Shown one piece after another: positions 20,746-44,830 of a stretch of 64,000 nucleotides of DNA. A model generated the notes under the pieces. It did not search any database and was not told the origin of the DNA. It saw nothing but the letters and a program-made list of their open reading frames with translations. Numbering within the stretch: the stretch's first letter is position 1; each line of letters begins with the position of its first letter. Position numbers and translations under genes: made by a program. Origin of the DNA: Acidobacteriota bacterium (GTDB lineage Bacteria; Acidobacteriota; Holophagae; Holophagales; Holophagaceae); NCBI GenBank assembly GCA_014189895.1, contig BJFQ01000003.1:1-64000 (forward strand). Direction: 5' to 3'.

Positions 20746-22458
20746 CTATTTTCGCTGAAGCAAAAGAAGATTATCGGATCCCGTTGGTACTTCTTTGACG
20801 GTTACAAAAGCGGACAGAAGGTTCGATCCTGACGGTTGACTAGTGGCCGCATTCCAATCGCTCGCCATAGCAACAAGAAAATGACCGGGTTTAATCTGTA
20901 AAGCACGATCGGGTTCATGAATTTCAGGCATGGCTTGATGGGTGAAGAGTAGAGCCCCGCCTCGTATGGTTCTCCAAAAGAAGACCGAATGGTCTTCAAT
21001 AATGGGCCTTATTTCAGCCCCCCATCTTTTAAAGCTTTTGAGAGGTTCCATGATGGGAAAACCTAAGTGTCCTGCAACACCAAAAACCAAAGCCAGAGTC
21101 ACGCACAATTCTTTAGCGGCGGTGATTAGATCCTTACTGAGAAGTCGATAAGCCACGGCGATCGTACCCAGTGAGGCTACAAAGAGGAGGGCATGGAGAA
21201 GCTTTCGTGAAGCGGGCTCGTAAAAAATAGAAATCAAATGAGGTATCGGAATGAGTTGATGAATACCAAGGGCCAAGATGAGGAAGGTCAAGCACAGCAC
21301 CAAGGGCGTAATCATCAAAGTAAAATACGTAAAGCCCTTTATGAGTTTCCGGGTACTCGATAGGGTTTCATTCAAGAAACCCCCAACAATAATGCTCACG
21401 AAGGGGAAACTCATGAGGAGATACTTTCCTTGTTTGCTCTCAGAAAGGGAGAGTAAGACAAAGGGAATTAGGATGCACAAAGAAATAAATATCATTAGTG
21501 GGCTTCGGTTTTCTTTATTTTTATAAACACTAATTAGACTAGGAATTAATAGAAGCGACCAAGGGAAAAGGTCACCGAGGGCATATTCAAAATACTTCCA
21601 CCATGGTTGAATATGATCCCAAGCCCGGAGCGCTCGCTCTATATTTTGGTAAATGATTAAGTAATAGCCGTAAGACCAACCAGCGCGGTAGATGGCGATC
21701 GCATACCAAGGAAGTACGATAAGCGAGAAGAGACCAAGTAGGCTTAAAAAGTGAAACTCTTTCAACCGATAACTCTTTCTCTGGATAACCAAGAAGGCAG
21801 CTAGTATGACGATCGTCATTACGAGAGCTAGAGGCCCTTTTGTCAACGTCGCAAGACCCAAAAGGACGATGGATCGTCGATAGAAACGAGGGGCTTCATT
21901 ATCCTCTCGATAGGGCGCCAAGCCATTTTCAAGAAGATAACCACCAATCCAATACATCCAGCTTGAAGCTAGAAACACCGCAAATAACATGTCGATCTGA
22001 ATGTACTGAGCTTGCCAAAACCACAGCGGGAGAACCCCTAAAATCATGACCGCTCGATGAGACAACGTATCACTTAAAAAACGATGTACCCATTGCTTGA
22101 GAAAGAAAAAGAAAAGGATGCTGCTAAGAACTGATGGGAGTCGAAGAGCCCAGGGAATTAAATGATTGATGTCATTAGGAGTCCCGCCCAAAATTGAAAC
22201 TAGCCCGTTGGATATTTTCATCAACCAATAAAATAAAATGGGCTTCTCGGTATAAATGAGTCCATTGAAATAAGGGAATATCCATTCTTTTTTTTCAATC
22301 ATCTCACGAACCGCCTGGGCGAAGTCAGGCTCGTCAGGGGACCAGAAGTCTCGAATAGGAATTAGGGTCAGGTACAAGATAGAGAAGAATATTGGCCAAC
22401 GATAGGTCCTCAACCACTGCCCAAATTTTTCACCCGGAATCATCTTAGGAGCGTCCAT
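20746..22458 (-). CDS. ArnT-like lipid-linked sugar glycosyltransferase (GT83/PMT superfamily), copy 1
   Basis: 570 residues, polytopic, with about 11-12 membrane helices. The periplasmic loop motif DFWSPDEPDFAQAVREM near residues 38-55 corresponds to the acidic WxPDE motif of ArnT and other PMT-fold enzymes, which use polyprenyl-phosphate sugars. FPYFNGLIYTEKPILFYW follows. ArnT transfers 4-amino-4-deoxyarabinose to lipid A. The sugar here is not known. The soluble C-terminal part is about 100 residues. It starts 14 nt inside the end of the transporter gene upstream (VUT). Confidence 0.85.
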   Translation of the reverse strand: MDAPKMIPGEKFGQWLRTYRWPIFFSILYLTLIPIRDFWSPDEPDFAQAVREMIEKKEWIFPYFNGLIYTEKPILFYWLMKISNGLVSILGGTPNDINHLIPWALRLPSVLSSILFFFFLKQWVHRFLSDTLSHRAVMILGVLPLWFWQAQYIQIDMLFAVFLASSWMYWIGGYLLENGLAPYREDNEAPRFYRRSIVLLGLATLTKGPLALVMTIVILAAFLVIQRKSYRLKEFHFLSLLGLFSLIVLPWYAIAIYRAGWSYGYYLIIYQNIERALRAWDHIQPWWKYFEYALGDLFPWSLLLIPSLISVYKNKENRSPLMIFISLCILIPFVLLSLSESKQGKYLLMSFPFVSIIVGGFLNETLSSTRKLIKGFTYFTLMITPLVLCLTFLILALGIHQLIPIPHLISIFYEPASRKLLHALLFVASLGTIAVAYRLLSKDLITAAKELCVTLALVFGVAGHLGFPIMEPLKSFKRWGAEIRPIIEDHSVFFWRTIRGGALLFTHQAMPEIHEPDRALQIKPGHFLVAMASDWNAATSQPSGSNLLSAFVTVKEVPTGSDNLLLLQRK

Positions 22459-23191
22459 TTTTTTGTCCTACGGGGAAAGGATTGAAATCTGTTTCATAAT
22501 CGTAGATATCCACTTCCTCGGCCTTCTTGAGGTAGCTAACCGTTGCATATGTGATCGGTGTCATTAAAGTCTCATAGATAACTTTGGCAAAGTAGCCTGA
22601 AACTACTAAGTTAAGAATGATGCCAACAGGGAGTTGACCCGCATGGAAACCAAAATTAATGATCAGCGAGTCTACAAGTTGTCCGGCTATGGTACTTCCA
22701 ATAGTACGGGTCCATAGCATTTGACCTCTCGTCATGATTTTCATTTTGGCGAGAACATAAGAATTGACGAATTCGCCTGCCCAAAAGGCAATAAGACTAA
22801 AAATTACCATGCGGGGAACCTGCCCTAAGACCGCCTCGAAAGCAAGCTGGTTCTTCCATGCGGGATCGAAAGGTAACCAAACCATGAAGGCACACATTAC
22901 TGCCATAAGCGTTGAGGCGAAGAAGGCAATCCAAATTGCCCTTCGAGATGCGCCGTATCCATAAACTTCGGTAAAGATGTCCCCAAATATATACGTGATG
23001 GGGAAAAGGAGTTGGGCACCGCTAAATTGGATATCAAAAGTGTGGCCCATGAAGTAAAAGGAACCAAAATTTGTGATCTTTTGGCCGACTAAATTCGAAA
23101 CCATGAGAATGACGACATAGACATGGATAAGCGTATTCAGGTGCTTAAAGCGATTCGTGTCGAATGGTTGTTTTTTTATATTTTGATTCAT
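22445..23191 (-). CDS. Queuosine precursor transporter (VUT family, YhhQ-like)
   Basis: 248 residues and about six membrane helices. Motifs include MVSNLVGQKI, LLFPITYIFGDIFTEVYGY and GQLVDSLIINFGF, typical of YhhQ/COG1738 transporters that import 7-cyano-7-deazaguanine or related queuosine precursors. It lies between the two ArnT-like genes (6-nt gap upstream, 14-nt overlap downstream). No other queuosine gene is in the window, so its presence in this run is not explained by function. Confidence 0.86.
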   Translation of the reverse strand: MNQNIKKQPFDTNRFKHLNTLIHVYVVILMVSNLVGQKITNFGSFYFMGHTFDIQFSGAQLLFPITYIFGDIFTEVYGYGASRRAIWIAFFASTLMAVMCAFMVWLPFDPAWKNQLAFEAVLGQVPRMVIFSLIAFWAGEFVNSYVLAKMKIMTRGQMLWTRTIGSTIAGQLVDSLIINFGFHAGQLPVGIILNLVVSGYFAKVIYETLMTPITYATVSYLKKAEEVDIYDYETDFNPFPVGQKNGRS

Positions 23192-23197
23192 AGAATT

Positions 23198-24934
23198 TTA
23201 TCGTGGCCTTAAGGCGGCCCCCGAGAGATTTCGTGGGGCGAGGAGTAAGTTGATATCTTGGTTTTGGTCTATGATAATCCACTGATCTTGGAGTATTTGG
23301 GGCATGAGTTTCCAGATTTTGACTTTTGCAATCATCCGAATGGGGGCTCCGGGAGCCAGGCGTTGGGTATCGGCCAAGGCCTGCTCTATCTGGCTTGGCT
23401 TTTCATAGAATTGAAGAGCAGCTTTTTCCGGAGACAGGCGATCTTTCCCAAAACGCAATTCACCGGTTCCTGCGATAACTCGACAAGGCTTTTGGGAATA
23501 ATAGGTAATGCCTTGAAAATAAGTACCAAAAGATAGCCATTCGGTATCGAGTGGAGATTGAACCACCCATTTTTTAACCGACTGAGGTGCAATGTAGTCT
23601 GAAAGGACATGAAAAGATAGCAAGAGCCCGACCATGGGTAAAAACAATACCGTGGCTAGGATCTTTGTTGGTGGTCGATAAGCAAAACGGAGAAAGAGAC
23701 CTGCCACGACAAATATCAGAAGGAGCAAAAAGGCTAGATAAAAAGATGGGGCGTCTGAGAGCTTTAGGCTTAGGTAGCCCATTAATACTATTCCAATGAG
23801 AATGAGTTCTGAGCCGATATAGGTTTGCTTAAGCGGGGCCGATTCAGATGATTCATGAGTGGTGACGAGCAATAAGAGGGGCAATAATACAGGGTAAATA
23901 TAGGGCGGTAGCTTGGAACCGCTCAGCGAGAAGAAGACAAGAACCCAGAGCGAGAAAACAAAAAGTAGCCGCCTTAGGTGGTCAGGGTCATTAGCAGATA
24001 GGGGTTTTCGTGACATTAGGGTGGATTTCATCTCCCATAATCCTACGAGGGTGAAACGGGTCCATGGGATGAGGCCTGCCAAAAGGAATAGAAGAAAATA
24101 GGATTTATCGATGATCCAAATATCGCTTCCTTGCCGGGCATGCTCATGAGTGGTATATCGAATGAAGTTTTCGTAAATGAAAAAGAAGTATGAATGACCG
24201 GGATAGACTTGGTTAATTTTCCAAAACCAAGGAAATACTATGGCGATAAAAAGAAGGACCCCTTCCCATTTGATAACTTTTCTTACAAATTGAAGAGAGC
24301 TGAGGCCTCCGATGTAAATCAAGCCATAGCAAAAGATTAGCCCAGCAAATAAGACCAAGGCCACCGGCCCTTTGGTCAGAAAAGCTAAGCCTAAGAATGC
24401 CCAAACCGCCATAAGGGGTAGTCGCGATCCTGCTTTCCCTCCAGCTTCAGATTCAAGAAAGAACGCGAGTGACATCATCAGGAAAGCAGTAAAGAGAGCA
24501 TCCAAAGTGAGGATCTGGCTCATAGTGAATCCCATCAGTGAACTCAAGAGCGCCAGTGAAGGCCAGCTCCCAGAGGAAGGATTAATCAATTGAGTGATCT
24601 TTCGGCTTGACCAAATACAAAGACCAATAGCGATCACCACGGGGATTCTTGGCGCCCAATCATTGGGACCAAAGCATTCAATCGAGAGTGCTGAGATCCA
24701 ATATTGAAGAGGTGGTTTTTCAAAGTAGAGAACGCCATTGAGGTGAGGGGCAAGCCAATCTCCCGTAGATACCATCTCTCTCGCAATCTCAGCATATCGG
24801 GCCTCGTCAGGTTCCCAGAGAGGCCGGATGCTGAGAGCCAGAACCGAAGTACACACCCAAAGGAAAAGATCTAAGAACTTGAATGAACCTGAATTTAGTT
24901 TCTTAGTTATCAACGTCACGCCCCATGGTGTCAT
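23198..24934 (-). CDS. ArnT-like lipid-linked sugar glycosyltransferase (GT83/PMT superfamily), copy 2
   Basis: About 578 residues with roughly 12 membrane helices and the ArnT signature RPLWEPDEARYAEIAREM followed by GDWLAPHLNGVLYFEKPPLQYW. This is closer to canonical ArnT than copy 1. The frame is open further upstream, but the first 100 nt of that reading lie inside the ArnA-like gene. ATG 24934, or a TTG at 24913 overlapping the upstream stop, is more likely. It and copy 1 are diverged paralogues, perhaps with different donor or acceptor. Confidence 0.86.
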   Translation of the reverse strand: MTPWGVTLITKKLNSGSFKFLDLFLWVCTSVLALSIRPLWEPDEARYAEIAREMVSTGDWLAPHLNGVLYFEKPPLQYWISALSIECFGPNDWAPRIPVVIAIGLCIWSSRKITQLINPSSGSWPSLALLSSLMGFTMSQILTLDALFTAFLMMSLAFFLESEAGGKAGSRLPLMAVWAFLGLAFLTKGPVALVLFAGLIFCYGLIYIGGLSSLQFVRKVIKWEGVLLFIAIVFPWFWKINQVYPGHSYFFFIYENFIRYTTHEHARQGSDIWIIDKSYFLLFLLAGLIPWTRFTLVGLWEMKSTLMSRKPLSANDPDHLRRLLFVFSLWVLVFFSLSGSKLPPYIYPVLLPLLLLVTTHESSESAPLKQTYIGSELILIGIVLMGYLSLKLSDAPSFYLAFLLLLIFVVAGLFLRFAYRPPTKILATVLFLPMVGLLLSFHVLSDYIAPQSVKKWVVQSPLDTEWLSFGTYFQGITYYSQKPCRVIAGTGELRFGKDRLSPEKAALQFYEKPSQIEQALADTQRLAPGAPIRMIAKVKIWKLMPQILQDQWIIIDQNQDINLLLAPRNLSGAALRPR

Positions 24935-25949
24935 ATTCCAAGAGAAAATGTTCAAGGCTCTTTCTGAGGCTCTCGTCAATCCCAATAGTAGGTTTGAATC
25001 CAAAGGTTTGATGGATTTTAGCGATACTTGGGGTGCGAGTCAGCACGTCTTGATACCCCTTCCCGTAGAAGTCACTGCTACTCGAAACCTCAATCTCGCT
25101 GAGCGTGACATTGAGCTCTTTACGCTTAGGATGATCTGCCCATATATTTCTGAGCTTTTCAGCAATTTCTTTTACGCTATAATCATTCTTCGGATTTCCG
25201 ATATTAAATATCTGTCCGTCAGCCTTGTTATCTTTATTTTCAAGGATCATCATTAAGCCATCCATGGCATCATCGACATCAATAAAGCATCGACGTTGAG
25301 AGCCCCCATCAACTAACTTCAGGGGCTCACCATTAATCAGGTTCCAAATAAACTGAGTGACAAGCCTGGAACTTCCTTCTTTGGCTGCATGAAGACTATC
25401 GAGTTTAGGTCCCATAAAATTAAAGGGGCGAAAAAGAGTAAACCTGAGATTTTGTTGCCAACCGTAAGCCCATATGATGCGATCAAGGAGTTGCTTGGAA
25501 GTGCTGTAGATCCAACGATCCATCGCAATGGGACCGGTTACTAGAGGACTCTTGTCCTCATCGAACTCAGCGTCTGGACACATTCCATAGACTTCGCTCG
25601 TCGATGGAAAAACGATCCTTTTTTTATATTTCACACAATGACGAATGACCTTAAGGTTTTCCTCGAAATCGAGCTCGAATACGCGAAGCGGATTTTTTAC
25701 ATACGTCGCAGGTGTTGCGATGGCCACTAAGGGGAGTACAACGTCGCACTTCTTGACGTGCAGTTCGATCCATTCTCTCGAAATCGTAATATCGCCCTGA
25801 GAGAAGTGAAACCGTGGGTGATTAAGGTACTCAGTTACTTTGCTTGTCCCTAAATCCATGCCATAAACTTCCCAATCGGTCGTATTGAGAATTCGATGAG
25901 TTATATGAGATCCGATAAAACCATTGACCCCTAAAATAAGAATTTTCAT
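24903..25949 (-). CDS. Stand-alone ArnA-type UDP-glucuronate decarboxylase (SDR/epimerase fold)
   Basis: The 348-residue product is very close to the C-terminal dehydrogenase domain of ArnA, without the formyltransferase domain. It has GVNGFIG for NAD, ATPATYVKNP, PSTSEVYG with Thr117-Ser118-Glu119, Tyr148-X3-Lys152, RPFNFMGPK and GGSQRRCF with the Arg implicated in decarboxylation. These residues fit oxidative decarboxylation of UDP-glucuronate to the 4-keto-pentose. The ATG at 25949 follows AGGG. A GTG 6 nt upstream is possible. ArnB, ArnC, ArnD and the formylase are not in the window. Confidence 0.88.
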   Translation of the reverse strand: MKILILGVNGFIGSHITHRILNTTDWEVYGMDLGTSKVTEYLNHPRFHFSQGDITISREWIELHVKKCDVVLPLVAIATPATYVKNPLRVFELDFEENLKVIRHCVKYKKRIVFPSTSEVYGMCPDAEFDEDKSPLVTGPIAMDRWIYSTSKQLLDRIIWAYGWQQNLRFTLFRPFNFMGPKLDSLHAAKEGSSRLVTQFIWNLINGEPLKLVDGGSQRRCFIDVDDAMDGLMMILENKDNKADGQIFNIGNPKNDYSVKEIAEKLRNIWADHPKRKELNVTLSEIEVSSSSDFYGKGYQDVLTRTPSIAKIHQTFGFKPTIGIDESLRKSLEHFLLEYDTMGRDVDN

Positions 25950-41370: not shown

Positions 41371-43179
41371 GTGTCGAGTGAAATAAAGACTATCCCTGAT
41401 TTATTTTATAAAGCCATCGAGAAAGATTTGCCGGACGCTTTGGCCTATAAGCAGAATGGTAAATACCAACCGATCTCGCATCGCGAATACAAGGACCTTG
41501 TTGAGTGGATAGCCCTGGCTCTTCGCGAAAAGGGGCTTAAATCCCAAGAACGTGTGGCTATCATTTCCGAGAATCGGCCTGAATGGGCAGTCGCTGATTT
41601 TGCTTGTGCTATTTTGGGTTTGCCCACCGTAGTGCTCTACCCTACTCTAGTAGCTAATCAGTCTGCTTTTATCCTTCAGCACAGCGAAGTCTCTTGGGCG
41701 ATTTGTTCCGATTCAAATCAATTAAATAAAATTATAGAATCTTGGGAGCAACTACCCGATCTCCACACCATAGTCGTAATGGAAGGCGAAGTGCCGGTTG
41801 TTCCCCATAAAAATATCTATACCTGGGACCAAATGGTCGCCTGGGGTCGAGCCCTCTCCTCCGAGCAAAACGAAGTAAGGCAATGGGCTACGGCGGTAAA
41901 ACCTGAGGACTTATTAACGATTATCTACACCAGCGGAACAACGGGGGAGCCCAAGGGGGCTATGCTAACGCACCACAACTTGGTAACAAATATTGTGGAT
42001 TGTGCTGAATTTCTAGAGTTTCGTAAAGGTGACCGATCGCTGAGTTTTTTGCCCCTTAATCATATTTTTGAACGCATGGTAGGGCACTTCACGATGATGC
42101 ATGTGGGCGTATCCATTTACTACTCGGAGGGGGTTGCGAAAGTTCCCGATAATCTCTTAGAAGTTAAACCCACCATCCTTCTCGCTGTCCCTAGGATTTA
42201 TGAAAAAATATTCAACCGCACCTTCTTCATGGCAGCCCAAGCACCCCCACTTCAACGATTTATCTTTAGTCTCGCGATGCGTATTGGTCGGTGGTCACTA
42301 CCCTATCGCTATGCCCGTCGCCCCTTACCCTTCTATCTGAAATACCCCCACCAAGTGGCTAGTAAATTGGTCTACCAAAAGGTTCTATCACGACTCGGCG
42401 GCAACCTTCGGATGGCTGCTTCAGGGGGAGCCCCGTTATCACCTAAGATCCTCGAATTCTTTTGGTCAATTGGTCTCGATATTCTTGAAGGCTATGGGCT
42501 CAGCGAAACAAGCCCTGTGATCTCTTTCAACCGGTTTGGCAGCATTGCGCCAGGATCTGTGGGTAAACCGCTCTATGATACTTGGGCGGGTCGACCCTTT
42601 GTCAAAATTGCCGAGGATGGGGAGATCTTATGCCAAGGCCCTAACATCATGAAGGGGTATTGGAAAAATGAAACGGGCAGCCGCGAAGCTATTTCGTCGG
42701 ATGGTTATTTTCATACGGGTGATATTGGCTATTTTAAAGATGGAAACCTTTACATTACGGATCGCAAAAAGGATCTTATCATCACTTCCGGAGGCAAGAA
42801 TGTAGCCCCTCAGCCCATTGAAAATGCCCTCAAGAGTGACAAGTACATTTCACAAGCGGTCATTCTTGGAGATGCGCAGCATTTCATTGGGGCCCTAATT
42901 GTTCCGGACTTTGAAGTCCTGGAACGCTGGGCTAAACGCCATAAAATATCTTTTGTCTCTCGAGAGGATCTGATTACTAACCGGCTTGTCGTAGAGAAAG
43001 TTATGAGACGGGTCCACAAGGTTAATACTCAATTTTCCAATTATGAACAGGTTAAAAAAATAGCTCTTCTCGGTCAGGAAATGACCCAAGAATCTGGGGA
43101 ATTAACCCCCACCATGAAGGTTAAACGTCGCGTCATTAATGAGAAATACCAGAAGCAGATCGATGACCTTTACCGTTGA
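41371..43179 (+). CDS. Long-chain acyl-CoA synthetase (AMP-forming)
   Basis: 602 residues, ANL superfamily. Features: the P-loop TIIYTSGTTGEPKGAMLTHHNL, the long-chain linker FLPLNHIFERMVGHF, ASGGAPLSPKI, LEGYGLSETSPVISFN, and YFHTGDIGYFKDGNLYITDRKKDLIITSGGKNVAP at the hinge. It activates fatty acids for degradation or lipid assembly. The start is GTG 41371. It overlaps the prenyltransferase gene by 17 nt if that starts at 43163. Confidence 0.94.
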   Translation: MSSEIKTIPDLFYKAIEKDLPDALAYKQNGKYQPISHREYKDLVEWIALALREKGLKSQERVAIISENRPEWAVADFACAILGLPTVVLYPTLVANQSAFILQHSEVSWAICSDSNQLNKIIESWEQLPDLHTIVVMEGEVPVVPHKNIYTWDQMVAWGRALSSEQNEVRQWATAVKPEDLLTIIYTSGTTGEPKGAMLTHHNLVTNIVDCAEFLEFRKGDRSLSFLPLNHIFERMVGHFTMMHVGVSIYYSEGVAKVPDNLLEVKPTILLAVPRIYEKIFNRTFFMAAQAPPLQRFIFSLAMRIGRWSLPYRYARRPLPFYLKYPHQVASKLVYQKVLSRLGGNLRMAASGGAPLSPKILEFFWSIGLDILEGYGLSETSPVISFNRFGSIAPGSVGKPLYDTWAGRPFVKIAEDGEILCQGPNIMKGYWKNETGSREAISSDGYFHTGDIGYFKDGNLYITDRKKDLIITSGGKNVAPQPIENALKSDKYISQAVILGDAQHFIGALIVPDFEVLERWAKRHKISFVSREDLITNRLVVEKVMRRVHKVNTQFSNYEQVKKIALLGQEMTQESGELTPTMKVKRRVINEKYQKQIDDLYR

Positions 43180-44050
43180 TCCCATAGGTTCTCTTTGGAA
43201 GAAGGTTCTAGAGTTTGGTCGTATGATCAAATTCGAACATACGATTTTTGCCCTCCCCTTCGCCCTGGTGGGATTAATACTAGCGTCGAAAGGCTGGCCT
43301 AGCCTTCCTGTCTTCGCCTGGGTGGTTCTCGCTGCCGTAGGGGCCCGGACAGCAGCCATGGGATTCAATCGTCTTATCGATCAAGAGATTGATGCTATTA
43401 ACCCCCGAACTCAAATACGTTCCCTACCAGCTCAAAGACTCACCCGAAGAGCGGCATGGATCATGGTCTTACTTTCGATTGCGGCCTTCTTCCTTGCGGC
43501 ACGGTCCCTTAATCCTTTATGTTTAAAATTGGCTCCATGGGTACTGGTAATTTTACTGGGCTATTCTTATACCAAGCGGTTCACGGCCTTTTGCCATTTG
43601 ATTCTGGGACTCTCTCTAGGTTGTGCGCCTATGGGGGCCTGGGTAGCTGTTACCGGAGCATTGGATGTCTTACCTATCTTGATTGCCGGGGGAGTCTGCT
43701 TTTGGACAGCGGGCTTCGATATCCTCTATGCTCTCCAAGACCAAGATTTTGATCGCCTGCAAGGGCTCCACTCTATCCCAGCCAAATGGGGGATGCAACG
43801 AGCCCTCTATTGTTCTAGGCTGTTTCACTTACTAGCCTGGTTCTTATGGGCATCAGCAGTAGCTCTGTCTTTGGGGCTCCAACCTCTCGCCTGGGCCGGG
43901 ATGTTCTTAATTGGGAGCATCTTGGCTCGCGAGCAATGGATTATGCGAACCGGCGATCTATCGCGACTCGATGAGGCCTTCTTCCAACTCAATGCCTGGG
44001 TCGGACCTATTTATTTCCTTAGCCTTTGTTACCCCTACCTCTTCCTGTAA
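43163..44050 (+). CDS. UbiA-family prenyltransferase (MqnP-like)
   Basis: About 295 residues with eight to nine membrane helices and the two Asp-rich motifs NRLIDQEID and DILYALQDQDFDR. The start FGRMIKFEHTIFALPFALVGLILA and NPRTQIRSLPAQRL resemble the 'UbiA_other' subgroup, which includes the futalosine-pathway enzyme MqnP. A quinone prenylation role is therefore likely, but not which quinone. An earlier ATG at 43139 lies deeper in the acyl-CoA synthetase gene. ATG 43163 is chosen. A terminator follows directly. Confidence 0.88.
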   Translation: MTFTVDPIGSLWKKVLEFGRMIKFEHTIFALPFALVGLILASKGWPSLPVFAWVVLAAVGARTAAMGFNRLIDQEIDAINPRTQIRSLPAQRLTRRAAWIMVLLSIAAFFLAARSLNPLCLKLAPWVLVILLGYSYTKRFTAFCHLILGLSLGCAPMGAWVAVTGALDVLPILIAGGVCFWTAGFDILYALQDQDFDRLQGLHSIPAKWGMQRALYCSRLFHLLAWFLWASAVALSLGLQPLAWAGMFLIGSILAREQWIMRTGDLSRLDEAFFQLNAWVGPIYFLSLCYPYLFL

Positions 44051-44102: not shown

Positions 44103-44318
44103 TTATCGGTTGGCGATATGCCAAGCAATGAAAGCGGTTACGAGTCCGGCAAGACCTTGGGCAGACAAGCTGCTGGCAATGTTTGACAGATTCGTAATAG
44201 GTGCCCAGCCATTCATGCTGGAGCCTAAAACTTGAAGAAGTACTGAGATGGTCAAGAGTACCCAAACAAGAGAAGTGATTCTCTTGACGGCATCCACGAT
44301 CATATCGAGTATTTGCAT
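44103..44318 (-). CDS. Small membrane protein of unknown family, paralogue A (71 residues)
   Basis: ATG 44318 follows GAGGAGGGAACC, a strong Shine-Dalgarno. The frame is open further upstream but has no support there. The protein has an amphipathic start (MQILDMIVDAVKRI), a hydrophobic helix LVWVLLTISVLLQVLG, a polar loop (SSMNGWAPITNL) and a second helix GLAGLVTAFIAWHIANR. It is roughly half identical to paralogue B 198 bp upstream. Own terminator downstream and own regulatory element upstream. I know no family for it. Holin-like, porter-like and stress peptide roles are all open. Confidence 0.82.
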   Translation of the reverse strand: MQILDMIVDAVKRITSLVWVLLTISVLLQVLGSSMNGWAPITNLSNIASSLSAQGLAGLVTAFIAWHIANR

Positions 44319-44383
44319 GGTTCCCTCCTCAGGGATAGTTATGTGCATAAGATACTCCCGACTGCCCACAAAATAAAGCAAAA

Positions 44384-44411
44384 GGTCACAAAATAATTAC
44401 ATTTCATGTAA
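44384..44411 (-). promoter_or_regulatory. Upstream element and palindrome of small gene A
   Basis: GGTCACAAAATAATTACA (44384-44401) matches 15 of 18 bases of an element upstream of gene B. It overlaps the perfect inverted repeat TTACAT-TTC-ATGTAA (44397-44411), a typical operator shape. Distance to the start codon is 66 nt. Confidence 0.45.
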
Positions 44412-44461
44412 ATACTGTTTTTATTGAGTTTAAGTAAATATGTAAAAGTCTTTAAATAGTA

Positions 44462-44495
44462 AAAACCCCCAAACATAAAGATGCTTGGGGGTTTT
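44462..44495 (-). terminator. Intrinsic terminator of small gene B
   Basis: AAAACCCCCAA (44462-44472) pairs with TTGGGGGTTTT (44485-44495), with extra CAT/ATG pairing in the loop. It stands 20 nt after the stop of paralogue B, separating its transcript from that of paralogue A. Confidence 0.9.
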
Positions 44496-44515
44496 ACAGG
44501 GCTACAAAATTGCTA

Positions 44516-44734
44516 TTAGCTATTGCGTGTAGCCATATTCCAAGCAATGAAAGCAGCAAGAATACCGACAACACCAGTATTAAAGCCTTGAGATAGGGTC
44601 AATAAATTTTTAACTGGGGTAAGGCCCGCCATCGGCAGACCTAAAACTTCAAGCAAGATAGCGATGGTTAAAAGCACCCATATAAAACCGGTGAATCTTT
44701 TAATGACATCGGAGATCGTATCGAGTAATTGCAT
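44516..44734 (-). CDS. Small membrane protein of unknown family, paralogue B (72 residues)
   Basis: The start ATG 44734 follows AAGGAGGGCC, a very strong Shine-Dalgarno. Layout is the same as paralogue A: amphipathic MQLLDTISDVIKRF, helix FIWVLLTIAILLEVLG, loop with LTPVKNLL, and a final helix VVGILAAFIAWNMATR. Shared invariant parts are KR, WVLLTI, VLG, NL and AFIAW. The strong ribosome binding sites and dedicated terminators suggest abundant expression. No known partner gene adjoins it, with ruvB starting a separate unit. Confidence 0.83.
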   Translation of the reverse strand: MQLLDTISDVIKRFTGFIWVLLTIAILLEVLGLPMAGLTPVKNLLTLSQGFNTGVVGILAAFIAWNMATRNS

Positions 44735-44812
44735 AGGCCCTCCTTAAGGGATGAGTTATGCCCCTAATGTTAGGCACATTTTCCTTAAAGGTGTAGCGTT
44801 ATTGTCAAAGAA

Positions 44813-44830
44813 TAATTACAAAGATCCTAC
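44813..44830 (-). promoter_or_regulatory. Upstream element of small gene B
   Basis: TGTCAAAGAATAATTACA matches 15 of 18 bases of the element at 44384-44401. On the minus strand it ends in TTGACA, a consensus -35 (44818-44813), although no good -10 is seen at 16-18 nt. It lies 79 nt from the start codon. The rest of the 166-bp gap to ruvB shows nothing recognisable. Confidence 0.45.

What the first reader, a model, noticed from the sequence alone, without database searches (positions are those of the whole stretch)
44103..44830. Tandem, separately terminated genes for paralogous 71- and 72-residue membrane proteins of unknown family
The two proteins share an amphipathic KR-containing start, a WVLLTI-type helix, a polar NL loop and a terminal AFIAW helix, about half identical by eye. 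Each gene has a near-perfect Shine-Dalgarno and a strong hairpin terminator of its own. No recognised partner gene is adjacent. Independent units with strong translation signals suggest abundant, differently regulated small membrane proteins, for example stress, channel or scaffold proteins. Of everything here this is the best candidate for an undescribed system.
Basis: partly seen in the sequence, partly recalled or inferred. Interest (0 to 1): 0.6.

Follow-up and report, generated by a model that had tools for sequence, protein, structure and literature searches.

The report
Twin small membrane proteins, unknown role
A tiny-genome freshwater bacterium keeps two neighbouring, related genes for short membrane proteins of a family no database searched here describes; a distant relative carries its own, apparently separately made pair, which suggests the proteins are useful in twos, but nobody knows for what.

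Summary
Two adjacent minus-strand genes (A 44103-44318, 71 aa; B 44516-44734, 72 aa; 49% identical) have among the best Shine-Dalgarno sites in the window and their own intrinsic terminators. The host is a streamlined freshwater Holophagaceae, very probably Acidiparvus (GTDB UBA12189). All three held species of the genus keep the pair in place (ruvB-B-A-ubiA), under purifying selection, with terminator hairpins kept even where their sequence changed. "Differently regulated" is not supported: both genes carry a matching 17-bp upstream box at -83/-86 and a matching leader, and the box occurs nowhere else in the genome. "Abundant" is only partly supported. No Pfam, NCBIfam, PHROG, PADLOC, PDB, phage, plasmid or viral relative was found. 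New: an Acidobacteriota genome of another class has a distant homologous pair (hhalign 95%, controls far below), also in tandem; a single shared duplication is rejected (AU p=0.004). Best reading: co-produced two-helix membrane hairpins that assemble together, probably as accessory or regulator of a larger membrane complex; that last step is inference. Holin, toxin and SMR readings are disfavoured. A real, undescribed orphan family of a familiar kind.

The parts
44103..44318 (-). gene A, 71-aa two-TM membrane protein MQILDMIVDAVKRITS...
   Evidence: purifying selection
44516..44734 (-). gene B, 72-aa paralogue MQLLDTISDVIKRFTG...
   Evidence: purifying selection
44319..44343 (-). leader of A: CATAACTATCCCTGAGGAGGGAACC with Shine-Dalgarno; SD can lie in a small CCCT/AGGG hairpin
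   Evidence: identical in three genomes; SD strength; fold (not better than shuffles)
44735..44760 (-). leader of B: CATAACTCATCCCTTAAGGAGGGCCT with Shine-Dalgarno
44384..44401 (-). upstream box of A, TGTAATTATTTTGTGACC (starts 83 bp before ATG)
44803..44820 (-). upstream box of B, TGTAATTATTCTTTGACA (starts 86 bp before ATG)
44462..44495 (-). intrinsic terminator of B
   Evidence: different sequence but same kind of hairpin in L009 and L010
44053..44088 (-). terminator of A, bidirectional with the convergent ubiA-like gene (43139-44050 +)
   Evidence: conserved in L009 and L010

Best explanation
A and B are two co-produced paralogues of an undescribed family of small inner-membrane proteins. 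Each is a helical hairpin: an amphipathic start with D5, D9, K12 and R13 at the cytoplasmic face, a first TM helix (about 17-33), a polar turn with invariant N43, and a second TM helix (about 53-69) with a G-x-x-G packing motif. They are expressed from two short transcripts under one shared control and most likely pack together in mixed oligomers. In the membrane they would work as an accessory subunit or regulator of a larger complex, or as a small scaffold for it, retained because the streamlined cell depends on that complex. Shown: the genes, their conservation, the family, the second pair, the shared upstream box, the terminators. Inferred: topology, mixed oligomer, accessory role.
For: Pair and synteny kept in a 1.17-Mb genome and its two congeners; purifying selection; strong SDs; conserved terminators; matching upstream box at -83/-86, 15/17 identical, 0 of 300 shuffles, not elsewhere in the genome with 2 or fewer mismatches; TM and amphipathic profile; N43, G54 and G57 invariant even in the distant pair; distant tandem pair in another class, hhalign 95%, E 3e-8, shuffled and membrane-segment controls at most half the score; one shared duplication rejected, AU p 0.004, consistent with a recurrent need for two different subunits. 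Of the few well-studied small membrane proteins many are regulators of larger membrane proteins (PMC11539335).
Against: No partner gene is conserved next to the pair in the two lineages. AlphaFold models are low confidence (pLDDT 64-66) and no oligomer could be modelled. The within-lineage similarity could reflect gene conversion instead of two duplications. No expression data.
Confidence: 0.4

Rival explanations
1. Abundant stand-alone membrane stress or scaffold proteins (acting like Pmp3/YqaE-type two-TM proteins), duplicated for dosage, acting on membrane potential or curvature without a protein partner.
For: Strong SDs and ribosomal-like codon use of B in the window; amphipathic start, muH 0.60-0.63; no conserved partner gene; pairs in two lineages.
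Against: No Pfam match to such families; the paralogues differ at half their positions and stay distinct in all three species, which pure dosage does not need; codon bias not kept in relatives.
Confidence: 0.3
2. Holin/antiholin-like pair or phage remnant.
For: Two small two-TM paralogues with charged N-termini in tandem.
Against: No PHROG, phage or viral-contig match; fixed position between housekeeping genes in three species; no lysis gene nearby; separate terminators.
Confidence: 0.06
3. Small membrane toxins of a toxin-antitoxin module.
For: Short hydrophobic proteins; gene A has unusually conserved silent sites in its 5' half, as an RNA-regulated toxin might.
Against: No Pfam or PADLOC match above chance; very strong SDs; no Rfam RNA other than tRNAs in the window; strict conservation of place; longer than typical type I toxins (own knowledge).
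Confidence: 0.07
4. Half-size SMR-type transporter working as an A/B heterodimer.
For: Weak Pfam Multi_Drug_Res similarity (E 0.015-0.025, below cut-off); paired SMR proteins exist (own knowledge).
Against: Below the curated cut-off; two TM helices against four; no conserved Glu in the middle of TM1 (E29 at its end is Q in A).
Confidence: 0.05

Closest known systems
Tandem pair in an Acidobacteriota genome of another class (G093 contig 43, L037/L073)
   Same: 72-aa length, hydrophobic hairpin pattern, N43/GxxG core, head-to-tail pair, no recognised partner
   Different: 25-28% identity; separate duplication by tree; other neighbours (nitroreductase-like, DUF885-like peptidase, named from the translations); weaker amphipathic start
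Pmp3/YqaE and similar two-TM small stress proteins
   Same: size and two TM helices; could work alike
   Different: no profile match
Small accessory membrane proteins such as AcrZ and MgrB
   Same: small integral membrane proteins; plausible mode of action
   Different: those have a single TM helix and known partners; no sequence relation found
Small multidrug resistance proteins (SMR, PF00893)
   Same: weak local hydrophobic similarity (E 0.015-0.025)
   Different: half the helices, below cut-off, key Glu absent

Membership tests
SMR transporters (PF00893) | score above the Pfam gathering cut-off (23.7 bits) | tested here: not met
   15.5 bits for B
SMR transporters (PF00893) | four TM helices with a conserved Glu in TM1 | tested here: not met
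   two hydrophobic peaks; no conserved Glu in mid TM1
Phage holins | profile match to a holin family | tested here: not met
Phage holins | linked lysis or phage genes | tested here: not met
   neighbours ruvB, ispF, ubiA-like, acyl-CoA ligase-like
Toxin-antitoxin (type I) membrane toxins | profile match or known antitoxin RNA | tested here: not met
Toxin-antitoxin (type I) membrane toxins | growth arrest on expression | not testable with these tools
   needs an experiment
Pmp3/YqaE, ATP synthase c and other known two-TM families | Pfam or NCBIfam match | tested here: not met
The family defined by A, B and the G093 pair | full-length homology above controls | tested here: met
   hhalign 95%; score 38.5 against at most 18.2 in controls

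The most novel reading that the evidence does not exclude
A new family of two-helix membrane proteins that repeatedly becomes a co-regulated heteromeric pair in Acidobacteriota and forms a previously unknown membrane assembly (pore, ring or energy-coupling accessory) that a streamlined freshwater bacterium cannot lose.
Probability: 0.12. Interest if true: 0.75.

Novelty: new member of a known kind. Interest (0 to 1): 0.36.

Why it matters
Streamlined genomes discard what they can, so an orphan gene pair kept in every held species of the genus, with its control elements, probably does something needed. A second pair in another class, apparently formed separately, makes the pairing itself a testable hint that the proteins act as heteromers. 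It gives a small, tractable target, and a family that no library used here names.

Tried and rejected
CsrA control of the SD hairpins: no csrA found in the genome. Regulon of the upstream box: no further site with up to 2 mismatches, and 3-mismatch sites near background. Leader motif elsewhere: background level. Fold search of the model: nothing, and the model is too weak to trust. Other phylum hits of the profiles lie mostly in long ORFs or look like chance on inspection. Search of other phyla's whole genomes was not possible with the handles available; the single genome-contig scan returned only the same genus. RNA structure in the A leader and 5' CDS: not better than shuffles. Contamination as the source of the G093 contig: unlikely, same-genus G105 has an 88% identical neighbour gene, cut at its contig end.

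Full report
What is there. The window is contig 3 of a 1.17-Mb, 97%-complete genome. Its nearest named relatives are the MAGs HTM.8 (titled Holophagaceae bacterium) and F1-20-MAGs096 (titled Acidobacteria bacterium). Together with the small genome this points to GTDB genus UBA12189, described as Acidiparvus: free-living, genome-streamlined freshwater Acidobacteriota with proteorhodopsin (PMC11561045). The genus name rests on that match of family and genome size, not on a marker-gene test. Between ruvB and a convergent ubiA-like gene lie two minus-strand genes, B (44516-44734, 72 aa) and A (44103-44318, 71 aa), 49% identical.

Are they real genes? Yes. Both are present, in the same order and place, in all three held species of the genus. 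Between the window and the other two species B keeps 92% amino-acid identity although silent sites are saturated or nearly so; A has dN/dS about 0.22. Their SDs match 6 and 7 consecutive bases; only 2 of 51 other window genes reach 6 and none 7. B's terminator has a different sequence in the relatives but the same kind of strong hairpin; A's terminator is shared back to back with the ubiA-like gene and is also conserved.

Regulation. Instead, both genes carry a matching 17-bp stretch, TGTAATTATT(T/C)T(G/T)TGAC, starting 83 and 86 bp before the start codon (15 of 17 identical, 0 of 300 shuffles as good; weaker but in the same position in the two relatives, 17/300 and 11/300), followed after about 42 unlike bases by a matching leader CATAACT-ATCCCT-AGGAGGG. 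The box has no other site with up to two mismatches in the genome (the pattern was derived from these sites, so only the absence elsewhere is informative). Shared ancestry of the duplicated promoters may explain the likeness, but the spacer has diverged while the box has not. I read this as common control of two transcripts. Codon use gives mixed support for high expression: B is above all 51 other window genes and like ribosomal proteins in this species, but not clearly so in the relatives; A is average.

Protein anatomy. Two hydrophobic stretches (about 17-33 and 53-69), an amphipathic first 16 residues (muH 0.60-0.63), and D5, D9, K12, R13, W19, N43, G54 and G57 invariant within the genus (B numbering). 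AlphaFold gives a long first helix and two further helices, but with low confidence (pLDDT 64 and 66), so the topology is an inference. A fold search found nothing.

Relatives. No match above cut-off in Pfam or NCBIfam, none convincing in PHROGs or PADLOC, none in PDB by sequence, phages or plasmids or viral contigs. A search of 396 Acidobacteriota genomes gave mostly chance hits in long ORFs, but one genome of another class (G093) has a 72-aa ORF with a second one directly upstream. Profile comparison of the two pairs gives 95% probability over nearly the full length; column-shuffled or reversed profiles and 117 membrane-protein segments score at most half as high. N43, G54 and G57 are kept in all. 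The contig belongs to that genus: a same-genus genome has an 88% identical neighbour gene. No other held genome of that family or class shows the pair, though in the same-genus genome the contig ends before the place where it would lie. In a tree the two pairs each group by lineage, and a single ancestral duplication is rejected (AU p about 0.004); two independent duplications, or homogenisation within each genome, explain this. The sequences are short and the distant ones contain a few masked residues, so this result carries some risk of model error.

How it works. Best reading: co-produced hairpin proteins that pack with each other through the GxxG face and serve as accessory or regulatory subunits, or a small scaffold, in the inner membrane. 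The genes, selection, shared box, family and second pair are shown; topology, heteromer and role are inferred. The kept pairing of two distinct paralogues in both lineages favours a heteromer over simple dosage but does not prove it. Holin, toxin and SMR readings lack the features that define those families.

Unexplained. The first 37 codons of A have almost no silent changes between species (3 of 32 against 13 of 26 in the rest; p about 0.001; B at the same place has 15 of 33). A short recombination tract or an RNA-level constraint could do this; RNA folding gives no support for a strong structure.

Limits. Genomes outside Acidobacteriota could not be searched beyond one pattern-based scan, so the true breadth of the family is unknown. 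I have a vague recollection of similar short proteins in other aquatic bacteria; that is a lead, not evidence.

Noticed in passing
window 44208-44318: The 5' half of gene A is nearly free of synonymous change among three species, unlike its 3' half and unlike gene B.
   Followed up: partly
L073 (G093 contig 43) 3590-4176: Distant tandem pair of 72-aa membrane proteins in another Acidobacteriota class, next to a DUF885-like peptidase and a nitroreductase-like gene.
   Followed up: yes
L009 4317-5110 and L010 matching region (ruvB 3' end through B into A): The two relatives are 94-99% identical over most of the stretch from the ruvB 3' end through B into the first half of A, then drop to about 65% in ubiA: looks like a recent recombination tract between them.
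   Followed up: no
window 20746-25003: Two large ArnT-like membrane glycosyltransferase genes with a queuosine-transporter-like gene between them, in a streamlined genome (named from the translations, not searched).
   Followed up: no
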